A DNA stretch of 64,000 bases from Streptomyces sp. NBC_00448 (lineage in GTDB: Bacteria > Actinomycetota > Actinomycetes > Streptomycetales > Streptomycetaceae). The stretch's first letter is position 1, and each line of letters opens with the position of its first letter. Shown here piece after piece: positions 10,455 to 18,726 of this stretch. The DNA lies in assembly GCF_036014115.1 (NCBI RefSeq), contig NZ_CP107913.1, forward strand, positions 5,441,001 to 5,505,000, given 5' to 3'. The notes beneath the pieces were generated by a model. It did not search any database. It was not told where the DNA came from and saw only the letters and a program-made list of their open reading frames with translations. A program made the translations under genes and the position numbers.

Positions 10455-11804
10455 TTAGTGGGGGTGGGTCTCTCGTCGGCTTCGCCGGGTGGTTGCGCAG
10501 CGTGAGCGTAGGCGTTGGTTGGTGCGGTTGCTGAAGCCGAAGGCGTTGCGGGCTTCGAGTTTGATGAGGCGGTTGTTGCCTTCGGAGGCGGCGTTGGTGA
10601 TGCCGGTGGTGAGGTAGGTCTCGATGCCGTCCCACCATTGCTCGACGGTCTCGGCGAGGGTGACGAGTTCGGGCAGGTGGGCGTGGTCGGCGACGTGGGA
10701 GAAGAAGCGGTGGCGGGCGGCGGAGATCGTGGAGTGGTCGGGGGTGACGTGCCTGCGGGTGACGGCCAGGTGCAGGAGGTCGCGCAGGAGTTCCTTGCTC
10801 TGCCAGGCCGCGTAGATCTGCTTCCCGTAGGTGCCCATGTGCTCCAACTCGGTTTTGAGGAGCTGGCGTTGTTCGTGGTTGAGGTCCTCCTTGTTGCGGC
10901 GCAGGATTTTGCGGACGGTGTAGATGCTGTCGCCCTTGCGGGCCCGGCGGCCGTGTTGCTTCCAGGTGAGGCGTCGGCGCAGGTCGGCGAGGTGTCTTTG
11001 GGCGAGTTGCACGATGTGGAAGCAGTCGACGACGACCTTGGCGTGGGGCAGGGCACGGTGGATCGCGGCGCGGAACGTGGCGCACAGATCGATGGCGACG
11101 TAGCGGACGGCCTCGCGCCAGGTCGCGGGCTGGAGGGCAAGCCACTCAGCGACCGAGGCCGCGTTGCGGCCCTCGACCTGCCCGAACAGCCCGCGCCCAC
11201 CGATCGCGTCGACGAACCCGATGTGCCAGGCGTCCGCGACGAGCTCCCACTTGTCGGTGTCCGGGTTCTGTTTCCAGACCGGCTTGCCCCGCCTCGTCTC
11301 ATCGATCCCGATCGCCTCGGTCTCAGCCGGCTCGGCGGGCAGGGACCTGGCCGCGTGGACTTCGAAGCAGTGCTGGACGATCGGCCAGGACAGGCCCAGG
11401 TCCCGGCCGGCCTGCACGACGGTGCGGCCGCCATCGGCCACCGCGGCCCCGGCCGCTTCGCGCAGCGCGGCGGTGGTCCGCATCCGGGCTGGCACCTGGG
11501 GTATCGCCTCGGTGAACGTCCGACGCGCGCAGGCCGCTTCGGTGCAGTGCCAGCGTGCCTTGCGCCAGCGGATACTCACCTGGCGTCCGCCGCAGGCCAG
11601 ATGTCTGGGAGCGGTGGTGCGGTAGTCCTTCAGCCGCGTGGCGAACACCCCGCACGAGGGGCAGGCCCGCGCGGAATCCTCGCCTGTTACGACGTACACC
11701 GTCGATCCACCCGCCCCGTCGTCCTTGACCTTGGTCACACTCACCCCCTCCAGCCCCAGCAGTCGTGTCGCGTCCCTGTTGATCTCGGTATCGTGAGTAC
11801 TCAA
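10455..11804 (-). CDS. ISL3 family transposase (449 aa)
   Basis: Starts with TTG at 11804 (MSTHDTEINRDATRLLGLEG). An N-terminal zinc ribbon (CPSCGVFATRLKDY, then HLACGG and CTEAACARR) is followed by a helix-turn-helix and the DDE catalytic domain: AIGIDETRRGKPVW and YVAIDLCATFRAAI supply the aspartates, and TNAASEGNNRLIKLEARNAF the glutamate region. It catalyses cut-and-paste transposition of the surrounding element. The full-length frame looks intact. The nested IS5-type unit begins only 28 bases upstream of the start codon, so its native promoter is displaced and expression is probably reduced or driven by the inserted DNA. Confidence 0.92.
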   Translation of the reverse strand: MSTHDTEINRDATRLLGLEGVSVTKVKDDGAGGSTVYVVTGEDSARACPSCGVFATRLKDYRTTAPRHLACGGRQVSIRWRKARWHCTEAACARRTFTEAIPQVPARMRTTAALREAAGAAVADGGRTVVQAGRDLGLSWPIVQHCFEVHAARSLPAEPAETEAIGIDETRRGKPVWKQNPDTDKWELVADAWHIGFVDAIGGRGLFGQVEGRNAASVAEWLALQPATWREAVRYVAIDLCATFRAAIHRALPHAKVVVDCFHIVQLAQRHLADLRRRLTWKQHGRRARKGDSIYTVRKILRRNKEDLNHEQRQLLKTELEHMGTYGKQIYAAWQSKELLRDLLHLAVTRRHVTPDHSTISAARHRFFSHVADHAHLPELVTLAETVEQWWDGIETYLTTGITNAASEGNNRLIKLEARNAFGFSNRTNQRLRSRCATTRRSRRETHPH

Positions 11805-11914: not shown

Positions 11915-12559
11915 ATGAGGTATGTCCTGTTTGATGTCGATGGCACATTGATCGATGCCGTGGACAACCAGCGCCTGGTCTGGTGCACGTGGGCAGAGCA
12001 GTACGGGCTGGACCCTGTTGAGGTCTACCGGGTGGCGCTGCGGACGAGGCCGATGGAGACGTTCGCGCAGGTTGCCCCGGACCAGAACCCCCAGGAGTGC
12101 CTGGCCGCGCTGCATGAGCTGGAGGACGAGGACGTCCGCTCCGGCGCGTATACGGCCTTCGACGGTGCCTCGGAGCTGCTGAGTGCGCTGCACCCCGGGG
12201 CCTGGGCATTGGTGACTTCGAACTATGAGCACCGGGTACGTGGACGTTTCGCGCGGACGGGCCTCGCGGTCCCGGACCTTGTCGTGGATGCGGCCGCTGT
12301 GACGGAAGGCAAGCCGTCGCCGGTGCCGTATCTGCAGGCAGCCGCGCGACTTGGTGCCCAGCCGGAGGACTGCCTGGTCATCGAGGATGCCCCTTCGGGG
12401 GTGCAGTCCGGTTTGCGTGCCGGGATGACGGTGTGGGGCGTCAACACCCCTGCGGCGGTGGACGGCGTGCATCGTCACTTCGGCAGCCTGCGCGAGGCAG
12501 TCCGTGACATCCTCGCCTTTGCGTCCGGGCGGGTGGAGGGATCAGCCGCAGTGGAATGA
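11915..12559 (+). CDS. HAD family hydrolase (phosphatase), IS passenger
   Basis: ATG 11915 gives MRYVLFDVDGTLIDAVDNQR, containing the HAD motif I with nucleophile Asp (DVDGT). Motif II is the Thr in WALVTSNYEHRV, motif III the Lys in EGKPSPVPYLQA and motif IV the acidic LVIEDAPSGVQSG. It belongs to the phosphoglycolate/beta-phosphoglucomutase-like subfamily with a helical cap, which dephosphorylates small sugars or metabolites. A GTG at 11885 could add ten residues. The C-terminus (FASGRVEGSAAVE) appears to read into the transposase leader. The gene sits between the left end of the IS5-type unit and its transposase. All catalytic motifs are present, so it is probably active. Confidence 0.8.
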   Translation: MRYVLFDVDGTLIDAVDNQRLVWCTWAEQYGLDPVEVYRVALRTRPMETFAQVAPDQNPQECLAALHELEDEDVRSGAYTAFDGASELLSALHPGAWALVTSNYEHRVRGRFARTGLAVPDLVVDAAAVTEGKPSPVPYLQAAARLGAQPEDCLVIEDAPSGVQSGLRAGMTVWGVNTPAAVDGVHRHFGSLREAVRDILAFASGRVEGSAAVE

Positions 12560-12566
12560 TCTTGCT

Positions 12567-13334
12567 GTGGCTGGTGTGATCACGGCGTCGGAGCCGTCTT
12601 GGATACTCCCGTTCACCGGGCTGAGCCCGCGACGGTTCACGAAGTTGGTGACGGCACTGCGTCGCGCGGGGGTCGATGCCGCTCGCCGGGGCAGGCCGTG
12701 GAGCCTGCCGCTGGAAGACAGAACACTGCTGGTCACGGCGTACTGGCGCACCAACTTGACGATGCGCCAACTCGCCGTGTTGTTCGGCATCTCCAAGTCT
12801 GCTGCCGACCGCATCATCGACCACCTCGGTCCGCTCCTGGCGCTTCAGCCCCGGCGCCGCTTCGCCAGAGATGCCGTACTCATTGTCGACGGCACCTTGG
12901 TCCCCACCCGCGACCACACGATCGCCGAACAGTCCAAGAATTACAGGTACTCCACCAACCACCAGGTCGTCATCGACGCCGACACCCGCAGAGTCGTCGT
13001 GGTCGGCCGGCCCCTGCCGGGCAACCGCAACGACTGCAAGGCGTGGGAGCAATCCGGCGCCAAAGCCGCCGTCGGAAAGACGATGACGATCGCCGATGGC
13101 GGCTATCCGGGCACCGGGCTCGTCATGCCCCACCGCCGCCCCAAGGGCGAGGAACTCCCCGACTGGAAACAGGAGCACAACCGCTCCCACAAGCAGGTCC
13201 GCGCCCGCGTCGAGCACACCTTCGCCCGCATGAAGACCTGGAAGATCCTCCGGGACTGCCGCCTCAAGGGCGACGGCGTCCACCACGCCATGCTCGGCAT
13301 CGCCCGCCTCCACAACCTCAACCTCGCCGGATGA
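12567..13334 (+). CDS. IS5 family transposase (255 aa)
   Basis: GTG 12567 begins MAGVITASEPSWILPFTGLS. A helix-turn-helix (RQLAVLFGISKSAADRIIDH) precedes the DDE_Tnp_4-type catalytic core: LIVDGTLVPTRD carries the first Asp, MTIADGGYPGTG the second, and RARVEHTFARMKTWKILRD the Glu. The length is usual for this streptomycete group. The gene lies eight bases downstream of the HAD gene and ends 50 bases before the right inverted repeat. The frame is intact, so the unit may still be mobile. Confidence 0.9.
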   Translation: MAGVITASEPSWILPFTGLSPRRFTKLVTALRRAGVDAARRGRPWSLPLEDRTLLVTAYWRTNLTMRQLAVLFGISKSAADRIIDHLGPLLALQPRRRFARDAVLIVDGTLVPTRDHTIAEQSKNYRYSTNHQVVIDADTRRVVVVGRPLPGNRNDCKAWEQSGAKAAVGKTMTIADGGYPGTGLVMPHRRPKGEELPDWKQEHNRSHKQVRARVEHTFARMKTWKILRDCRLKGDGVHHAMLGIARLHNLNLAG

Positions 13335-16797: not shown

Positions 16798-17337
16798 ATG
16801 AGCGACGTACGCACCGCCCTCCTGCGGCAGATCAAGGACAAGGCCGTCGTGCACGGCAAGGTGACCCTCTCCTCGGGCCTCGAAGCCGACTTCTACATCG
16901 ACCTGCGCCGGATCACCCTGGACGGACAGGCCGCCCCGCTCGCCGGCCAGGTGATGCTCGACCTGACCGCGGACCTGGAGTTCGACGCGGTGGGCGGACT
17001 CACCCTGGGCGCCGACCCGGTGGCCACGTCGATGCTGCACGCGGCCGCCGCCCGCGGGCAGCGGCTGGACGCGTTCGTGGTGCGCAAGGCCACCAAGACC
17101 CATGGTCTCCAGCGCCGGATCGAGGGCACCGACGTCAAGGGCCGCCGGGTGCTGGTGGTGGAGGACACCTCCACCACCGGCGGTTCACCGCTCACCGCCG
17201 TCGAGGCGGTCCGCGAGGCCGGTGGCGAGGTCGTGGCCGTCGCGGTGATCGTCGACCGGGGCGCCGCCGCGAAGATTGCCGAGGCGGGCCTGCCGTACCT
17301 GGCGGCGTACTCCCTCGCGGACCTTGAGCTGTCCTGA
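16798..17337 (+). CDS. pyrE: orotate phosphoribosyltransferase
   Basis: Transfers phosphoribose from PRPP to orotate, giving OMP in pyrimidine synthesis. The 179-residue protein has the expected N-terminal HGKVTLSSGLEADFYIDLRR, the catalytic loop FVVRKATKTHG and the PRPP-binding signature VLVVEDTSTTGGSPLTAVEA. ATG 16798 matches the family length. Its product should be soluble and dimeric. The gene is monocistronic in appearance, since a 38-bp palindrome containing a parS sequence follows 75 bases downstream and fba has its own leader. Confidence 0.96.
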   Translation: MSDVRTALLRQIKDKAVVHGKVTLSSGLEADFYIDLRRITLDGQAAPLAGQVMLDLTADLEFDAVGGLTLGADPVATSMLHAAAARGQRLDAFVVRKATKTHGLQRRIEGTDVKGRRVLVVEDTSTTGGSPLTAVEAVREAGGEVVAVAVIVDRGAAAKIAEAGLPYLAAYSLADLELS

Positions 17338-17411
17338 CCGCCCGAGACCTGAGCGTGCGAGTCGCGAACGCCCGCTGAGACCGGAGCGTCTGTCCTGACC
17401 TGGGATTTCAC

Positions 17412-17449
17412 GGCTCCTGGGATGTTTCACGTGAAACATCCCAGGAGCC
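17412..17449. promoter_or_regulatory. parS site (ParB-binding) at the centre of a 38-bp perfect palindrome
   Basis: TGTTTCACGTGAAACA at 17423-17438 is identical to the bacterial parS consensus recognised by ParB. It forms the middle of a perfect 38-bp inverted repeat with 19-nt arms, 17412-17430 and 17431-17449. In streptomycetes parS copies lie mostly around oriC and seed ParB nucleoprotein complexes. The extended GC-rich arms could also act as a pyrE transcription terminator, although there is no T-run. Confidence 0.9.
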
Positions 17450-17591
17450 TTCGCGTGTGCGTGGCCCGCCCACCGCGGGCCCCGGGTACGGCGAGGTGGT
17501 GTATTCGTTCGAGTCTGGGAAGATAAGGGCGACGATGACGTCGCCACGCATGTCAGCAGTACCACCCGCACAGTCATGAGGAGCGGAAACG

Positions 17592-18614
<1,023 letters not shown>

Positions 18615-18670
18615 CGGTCGGGCGCGCCTGGTTCGGCGCCTGCGATGCGGCGGGAGCCGTGCGGAATCGA

Positions 18671-18694
18671 GGCCCCCGGCAGCTGCCGGGGGCC
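18671..18694 (+). terminator. fba terminator
   Basis: A perfect 24-bp palindrome (arms GGCCCCCGGCAG and CTGCCGGGGGCC, no spacer) lies 57 bases after the fba stop and is followed by TTCTGCC. It is a typical GC-rich actinobacterial intrinsic terminator. Confidence 0.8.
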
Positions 18695-18726
18695 TTCTGC
18701 CTGCCCACTCGGGCAGACTGGAACCC

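What the first reader, a model, noticed from the sequence alone, without database searches (positions are those of the whole stretch)
17412..17449. parS embedded in a perfect 38-bp palindrome between pyrE and fba
The 16-bp ParB-binding consensus is exact and is extended by GC-rich arms to 19 nt each side, so one element may serve as segregation site and pyrE terminator. Its presence suggests proximity to oriC and a link of central metabolism genes with the ParB complex.
Basis: partly seen in the sequence, partly recalled or inferred. Interest (0 to 1): 0.6.

Follow-up and report, generated by a model that had tools for sequence, protein, structure and literature searches.

The report
Centromere site doubling as terminator hairpin
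A bacterial chromosome-segregation site lies at the tip of a long inverted repeat after the gene pyrE; in relatives the tip sequence stays fixed while the flanks change in matched pairs, so one short DNA element probably serves both as a ParB docking site and as an RNA hairpin that ends transcripts.

Summary
In detail: an exact 16-bp parS (17423-17438) sits in a perfect 38-bp palindrome (17412-17449) between pyrE and fba in an Actinacidiphila chromosome, about 457 kb from dnaA and outside the main oriC parS cluster. The site is conserved: it lies between pyrE and fba in 32 of 34 Actinacidiphila examined, in several other Streptomycetaceae genera and in part of Streptomyces, but in none of the Kitasatospora or out-of-family spacers examined. 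Among 79 distinct copies the 14-bp ParB core is nearly invariant, while the outer arms change sequence but stay complementary (covariation 0.603 versus 0.176 shuffled). The sense strand folds better than the antisense and carries more 3' U. Among 168 parS sites in 8 genomes, extended arms occur at convergent gene ends (19/47) and in tandem spacers (11/62), rarely inside predicted genes (1/34) and not at divergent or gene-start sites (0/25). The same kind of element recurs at trxA><GNAT and in a few other Actinomycetota. Best reading: a composite parS-terminator, comparable to uptake-sequence terminators of Neisseria. ParB binding and transcript 3' ends at this locus are untested.

The parts
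16798..17337 (+). pyrE (orotate phosphoribosyltransferase), the gene whose 3' end precedes the element
17412..17449 (.). perfect 38-bp palindrome; predicted 17-bp RNA hairpin with a 4-nt loop
   Evidence: perfect; -33.2 kcal/mol, z -9.8
17423..17438 (.). parS, exact 16-bp ParB-binding consensus, at the apex of the hairpin
   Evidence: 14-bp core nearly invariant in 79 distinct copies
17412..17422 (+). 5' outer arm (11 nt), covaries with the 3' arm
17439..17449 (+). 3' outer arm (11 nt)
17450..17457 (+). short 3' tail TTCGCGTG, 3 U in 8 nt; weak U tract
   Evidence: read; among 79 copies 3 or more U in 20 sense versus 4 antisense
17592..18614 (+). fba, class II fructose-bisphosphate aldolase, downstream gene
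   Evidence: ORF; PF01116 252.7 bits

Best explanation
The element is a composite of a chromosomal parS and a transcription-terminator-type RNA hairpin. As duplex DNA, the central 14-16 bp load the ParB clamp of the organism's own ParABS system, making an accessory loading site about 0.46 Mb from the dnaA/oriC region. When pyrE is transcribed, the same parS plus its GC-rich arms folds into a 17-bp hairpin behind the stop codon that ends and/or protects the pyrE mRNA and keeps RNA polymerase from running on into fba. Selection holds the core for sequence (ParB) and the arms only for pairing. Shown: anatomy, conservation, covariation, 3'-end bias, presence of parA, parB and dnaA. Inferred: ParB occupancy at this site, termination at this site, and the reason the two are fused.
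For: Core/arm contrast: in 79 distinct pyrE-fba copies 12 of 14 core columns are invariant, while all 13 arm pairs and one core pair show changes on both sides; cells paired 87.7% versus 62.8% shuffled, double-change cells 363 versus 142, covariation score 0.603 versus 0.176 shuffled and at most 0.221 when slid. Sense strand: folds better than antisense in 45 of 79 copies against 25 the other way (medians -32.3 and -28.5, Wilcoxon p 0.009), and 3 or more U in the 8 nt after the stem in 20 of 79 versus 4 of 79. Location: of 168 parS in 8 genomes, net arm extension of 6 or more occurs in 19/47 convergent, 11/62 tandem (5 of these 11 are pyrE-fba), 1/34 in-gene (that one is 11 nt from a stop), 0/14 divergent and 0/11 gene-start sites; random centres 0.6%. 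Second locus: trxA><GNAT parS, 246 of 351 arm pairs formed versus 146 shuffled (maximum 178 in 1000 shuffles) in 27 genomes. One relative (L062) has lost the core (6 mismatches over the 16-mer) but keeps a 15-bp stem. ParB, a ParA-type ATPase and DnaA are encoded in the genome.
Against: No ParB ChIP or 3'-end data for this genome or locus. The own U tail is weak and the consensus terminator scan (at least 5 T of 8) does not list the site. G.U over A.C in the arms (87 to 42) is only a little above the composition baseline (67% against 59%); for isolated interior pairs (31 to 12) p is 0.12 against that baseline, 0.005 against one half. Where parS is absent the spacer usually has no strong hairpin (z at or below -2 in 7 of 39, versus 47 of 54 with parS), so pyrE does not strictly need one. 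Some relatives keep parS with poor arms (for example L067, L096, L113, L199, L226), and 137 of 168 census parS lack extended arms. Species are related and orthologous sites recur, so the p-values overstate the evidence. The structure counted was named from the palindrome itself.
Confidence: 0.7

Rival explanations
1. Mutational origin: parS is a short palindrome, and template switching at such sites copies one arm onto the other, so long perfect arms arise and stay matched without any selection for RNA structure.
For: At trxA><GNAT arms look nearly all-or-none: 14 of 27 genomes have at least 19 perfect pairs from the centre, the other 13 lack such arms although parS is kept. Quasipalindromes are known template-switch hotspots (PMC7202029, only the start of the abstract seen in the listing).
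Against: Long arms are missing at divergent and gene-start parS (0/25), most of which are also outside predicted genes, though promoters there may select against palindromes; the mechanism predicts no sense-strand bias in energy or U tail. The two can act together: template switching may supply what selection keeps.
Confidence: 0.14
2. Plain parS with incidental arms: only ParB binding matters, and the palindrome is by-product or chance.
For: Most parS in the same genomes have no extended arms (137 of 168; own genome 16 of 20), so ParB does not need them.
Against: Covariation far beyond shuffles at two loci; random centres reach such extension in 0.6%.
Confidence: 0.05
3. The arms act at the DNA level, for example cruciform extrusion or a DNA geometry that helps ParB loading or SMC recruitment.
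For: Arms are complementary with free sequence, as a cruciform would need.
Against: Would apply equally to divergent and gene-start parS, where none of 25 has them; the sense-strand asymmetry is unexplained.
Confidence: 0.06
4. Plain pyrE terminator that resembles parS by chance or is bound by another protein.
For: A hairpin persists in L062 without a parS core.
Against: The core is invariant at 12 of 14 positions in 79 copies while arms vary freely, and it belongs to the same motif as the sites clustered around parAB and dnaA of the same genome.
Confidence: 0.05

Closest known systems
Chromosomal parS of the ParABS system (Streptomyces; many per chromosome, near oriC)
   Same: Same 16-bp sequence; ParB, a ParA-type ATPase and DnaA encoded close together in this genome.
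   Different: About 457 kb from dnaA and outside the main cluster; extended by covarying arms that most parS in the census lack.
Intrinsic terminators of high-GC Actinobacteria (highly structured, U-rich or U-poor 3' ends described for S. clavuligerus, PMC8269248, passages seen)
   Same: Stable GC stem with a short loop behind a stop codon; U-poor tails were the larger part of the highly structured 3' ends there.
   Different: The apical 14 bp are fixed, apparently by a second function.
DNA uptake sequence terminators of Neisseria (PMC2397512, passages seen)
   Same: A DNA-recognition motif arranged as an inverted repeat that functions as a rho-independent terminator.

Membership tests
chromosomal parS | 16-bp consensus TGTTTCACGTGAAACA | tested here: met
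   exact, (the consensus was typed from recall; sites of the same motif cluster around parAB and dnaA of this genome)
chromosomal parS | cognate ParB encoded in the genome | tested here: met
   ParB_N 121.2 bits and HTH_ParB 122.3 bits at C1 about 4.993 Mb; ParA-type ATPase next to it
chromosomal parS | core conserved at the orthologous place in relatives | tested here: met
   55 of 109 spacers (22 of the 109 outside the family, none positive) and 26 of 80 further ones, 4 of which repeat named loci; 32 of 34 Actinacidiphila
chromosomal parS | usual, not defining: lies in the oriC cluster | tested here: not met
   about 457 kb from dnaA; the other 17 sites at up to 2 mismatches lie at 4.80-5.03 Mb. 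[quoted passage not shown] coelicolor (PMC4852455, passage)
chromosomal parS | ParB occupancy in vivo | not testable with these tools
   no ChIP data for this organism; supplementary site lists of S. venezuelae could not be read
intrinsic terminator | stable GC-rich stem-loop behind the stop codon | tested here: met
   -33.2 kcal/mol, z -9.8; 74 nt after the pyrE stop
intrinsic terminator | U tract after the stem | tested here: inconclusive
   3 U of 8: reaches the 3-U class limit of PMC8269248, fails the 5-of-8 scan
intrinsic terminator | pairing kept by compensatory change | tested here: met
intrinsic terminator | transcript 3' ends at the site | not testable with these tools
   no Term-seq data for this organism
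known structured RNA family (Rfam 15) | match above gathering score | tested here: not met
   in 17200-17700 only microRNA models far below their gathering scores

The most novel reading that the evidence does not exclude
Insulated centromeres: the hairpin exists for the parS, not for the gene. Actinobacterial parS placed at gene 3' ends repeatedly acquire terminator arms so that elongating RNA polymerase stops at the ParB loading site, keeping the loading zone and the sliding clamps beyond it free of traffic; transcription punctuation and segrosome assembly would be coupled by design, with repeated gain in several Actinomycetota families.
Probability: 0.33. Interest if true: 0.75.

Novelty: new variant of a known kind. 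Interest (0 to 1): 0.55.

Why it matters
It points to a centromere-like DNA site and an RNA hairpin sharing the same bases, with separable constraint (core for sequence, arms for pairing). That makes a question directly testable: do ParB loading and sliding need protection from transcription? Paired arm mutations change the RNA hairpin without touching the ParB core. It also warns that parS or terminator prediction alone misses half of such an element, and offers many natural replicates (168 sites in 8 genomes, with and without arms).

Tried and rejected
Rejected: (a) chance palindrome; (b) known Rfam element: only microRNA models far below gathering score; (c) special link with fba/pyrE: the parS is missing in many lineages in which fba was found, and long-arm parS also lie beside other genes; (d) distance from oriC as the reason for absence: G191 and G181 lack the site although fba lies within about 0.3 Mb of their main parS cluster (judged by eye). 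Weak or unhelpful: the G.U versus A.C test leans towards the sense RNA but is not decisive against the composition baseline; T content after the arm is modest; the promoter scan found nothing. The idea that a terminator was there first is not supported in general: 7 of 39 spacers without parS have a hairpin at z -2 or below (letter shuffles, 30 per spacer; the last 90 nt before fba were left out, and only 93 spacers with a recognisable pyrE end and enough length were scored).

Limits: gene calls in the census are my own GC-frame predictions, so class labels can err, especially near gene starts. Orthologous sites recur among the 8 genomes, so the Fisher tests are descriptive. The arm measure is ungapped and misses bulged stems: a check showed that the census holds six pyrE-fba sites, not five; the sixth (G165, L371) has an uneven internal loop, scores 0 and is still inside the line 'without pyrE-fba', where tandem should read 6 of 56. 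The own-genome census holds 20 sites from fetched stretches and is not a genome-wide scan with the looser pattern; for G181, 23 of 24 sites were available (the list was cut). Genus labels for G103-G199 were copied by hand from the table. In the tree the bootstrap had not settled. Literature: open-access PMC library only; no parS-terminator report was seen in the listings, which is not proof that none exists; Jakimowicz 2002 is known only from citations.

Full report
Observation. The exact parS TGTTTCACGTGAAACA is at 17423-17438, the only match at up to 3 mismatches in the window. It is the centre of a perfect 38-bp palindrome, 17412-17449. The element lies in the 254-nt spacer between pyrE (16798-17337, +; PF00156) and fba (17592-18614, +; PF01116), 74 nt after the one and 142 nt before the other. 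As RNA it folds into a 17-bp stem with a 4-nt loop, -33.2 kcal/mol, z -9.8.

Genome context. The window is C1:5441001-5505000 of a 9.65-Mb single-contig genome. At up to 2 mismatches the genome has 18 sites, two of them exact; the other 17 lie at 4.80-5.03 Mb. That region encodes ParB, a ParA-type ATPase, GidB, YidD and DnaA; dnaA runs from about 4.999 Mb to at least 5.001 Mb, so the pyrE-fba site is about 457 kb away, isolated. The genus is Actinacidiphila: one genome of the same genus (G011) is identical to A. paucisporea over the 300 bases compared.

Conservation. I examined the spacer upstream of fba in 109 loci: 30 from the genome search and 79 named ones; one further named locus (L075) was left out as a repeat of L065. 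The core at up to 2 mismatches is present in 55: 27 of 29 Actinacidiphila, 1 of 1 of genus g6, 27 of 57 other Streptomycetaceae, 0 of 22 outside the family (row lists). In 80 further spacers it is present in 26: g1 5/5, g7 2/2, g8 2/2, g12 1/1, g13 3/3, g16 2/2, g17 1/1, g9 10/33, g14 0/21, g3 0/6, g11 0/2, g10 0/1, g4 0/1. Here g9 holds Streptomyces and g14 Kitasatospora, judged from identical named loci; 4 of the 80 repeat named loci. In one search every spacer is either at 0 mismatches or at 5 and more. On an fba DNA tree of 90 rows the trait needs 11 changes against 28 on average in 500 shuffles, none as low (bootstrap not settled), so it is inherited, with repeated loss and/or gain.

Core versus arms. 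79 distinct 48-nt stretches align without gaps; they come from the 55 and 26 positive spacers less one too short (L110) and one repeat (L233). Twelve of the 14 core columns are invariant. All 13 arm pairs and one core pair show changes on both sides. Paired cells 87.7% versus 62.8% in shuffles, double-change cells 363 versus 142, further pair types 60 versus 48, covariation score 0.603 versus 0.176 shuffled and at most 0.221 slid; 0 of 500 shuffles reach the observed value for these measures, while the count of pairs with a two-sided change (14) is reached by 286 of 500 and is uninformative. The structure was named from the palindrome, which favours it over the slid versions to some degree. 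The arms thus conserve pairing, not sequence; the core conserves sequence.

Which strand. If the arms work in the pyrE transcript, + strand wobble should be favoured. G.U pairs number 87 and A.C 42 in the arms, a 67% share against 59% expected from composition; for isolated interior pairs 31 and 12 (p 0.12 against that baseline, 0.005 against one half). Sense folding is better than antisense in 45 copies and worse in 25 of 79 (p 0.009), and 20 of 79 have 3 or more U in the 8 nt after the stem on the sense side versus 4 of 79 on the antisense side. In 46 of 55 loci my pattern found the end of pyrE, and its stop lies 23-177 nt before the parS centre; in the other 9 the pattern failed. Together this leans towards a sense RNA hairpin with a weak U tail. 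Highly structured, U-poor 3' ends are a described class in S. clavuligerus (PMC8269248, passages).

Is it general? A covariance model of the 79 copies (R1) scores the window site best in its genome (58.6 bits) and a 46-bp palindrome at C1:4992057 second (41.9 bits). In 22 genomes chosen by me, many of the hits lie at places other than pyrE-fba. I then classified 168 parS (GTTYCACGTGRAAC) in 8 genomes by my own gene predictions. Net arm extension of 6 or more: convergent 19/47, tandem 11/62, in genes 1/34, divergent 0/14, gene starts 0/11; random centres 0.6%. The census holds six pyrE-fba sites, all tandem: five pass, the sixth (L371) has an uneven internal loop that my ungapped measure scores as 0. 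Convergent against divergent plus gene starts: p 1.2e-4. These tests treat orthologous sites as independent and are descriptive. Extended arms are thus a property of part of the parS at gene ends, not of parS in general: 137 of 168 lack them.

Second locus. Between trxA and a convergent GNAT gene next to parB, 27 of 30 Actinacidiphila loci examined have parS and 3 have none. Fourteen of the 27 have perfect arms of 19-26 nt half-length with differing sequence; 13 lack such arms. 246 of 351 arm pairs are formed against 146 in shuffles, maximum 178 of 1000. The nearly all-or-none look suggests that template switching helps to make these palindromes perfect.

Beyond the family. A scan of 296 genomes of the phylum with stricter filters finds model hits at E 1e-4 in 15: the own genome, eight of g9 and six in other families. 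I read those six: each has a parS with arms; L313, L317, L325 and L326 have a ParA-like gene within the 3-kb stretch (recognised by eye), and L316 and L323 have an A-tract before the stem, L316 also T-rich letters after it, as in classical terminators.

Separable parts. L062 has lost the core (6 mismatches over the 16-mer) yet keeps a 15-bp stem. Others keep the core with poor arms. But spacers without parS usually lack a strong hairpin: z at or below -2 in 7 of 39, versus 47 of 54 with parS. This counts against 'pyrE needs a terminator here' as the only cause and keeps open that the hairpin serves the parS.

Mechanism. Most likely the duplex core loads ParB, and the transcribed strand folds to end or protect the pyrE mRNA. 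ParB itself need not block RNA polymerase: B. subtilis ParB clusters did not hinder E. coli RNA polymerase in vitro (PMC10681803, passages). Whether transcription disturbs ParB loading is the untested step behind the insulation reading.

Known kinds. parS clusters near oriC in Streptomyces are well described, with ChIP in S. venezuelae (PMC4852455, PMC12511625, PMC8410768, PMC8743542; passages). In C. glutamicum 9 of 10 parS are intergenic (PMC7083940, passage). DNA uptake sequences as inverted repeats that function as terminators in Neisseria are the nearest analogue (PMC2397512, passages). I saw no report of parS as terminator in the listings; the library is open-access only.

Verdict. Observation confirmed; dual function partly supported and generalised; oriC proximity loose; metabolic link unsupported. 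A new variant built of two known kinds, interest moderate.

Noticed in passing
window 18670-18695: A perfect 26-bp palindrome AGGCCCCCGGCAGCTGCCGGGGGCCT 55 nt after the fba stop, without parS; probably an ordinary fba terminator.
   Followed up: partly
window 17528-17545: A dyad around GACGATGACGTC upstream of fba is conserved: exact in 84 of 190 spacers and at most 1 mismatch in 105 of 190, out-of-family and a few repeated loci included; perhaps a promoter or operator element of fba.
   Followed up: partly
window 17330-17339 and 17391-17400: TGTCCTGACC occurs at the pyrE stop and again 61 nt later (read); the pyrE-parS distance varies from 23 to 177 nt among relatives.
   Followed up: no
L329:1518 and 1563; also L318, L327: In Streptomyces, pairs of parS hairpins sit side by side at a gene end; one in L329 is perfect over the 52 bp shown.
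   Followed up: partly
G000:C1:4340891-4340939: A model hit of 35.1 bits with one extra base, far from the parS cluster; no parS core was found in the fetched stretch L259.
   Followed up: no
window 10455-11804 (-) and 12504-13334 (+): Two ORFs that look like transposases from their translations (recalled resemblance, not searched).
   Followed up: no
G028 parS sites, L281-L289: In Actinacidiphila G028, 11 of 21 parS are GTTCCACGTGGAAC, whereas in the Streptomyces genomes scanned nearly all listed sites are GTTTCACGTGAAAC; possible drift of ParB preference.
   Followed up: no
L371 around the parS core: The G165 pyrE-fba site keeps 9-bp outer arms but with an uneven internal loop next to the core, so ungapped arm counts miss it.
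   Followed up: partly
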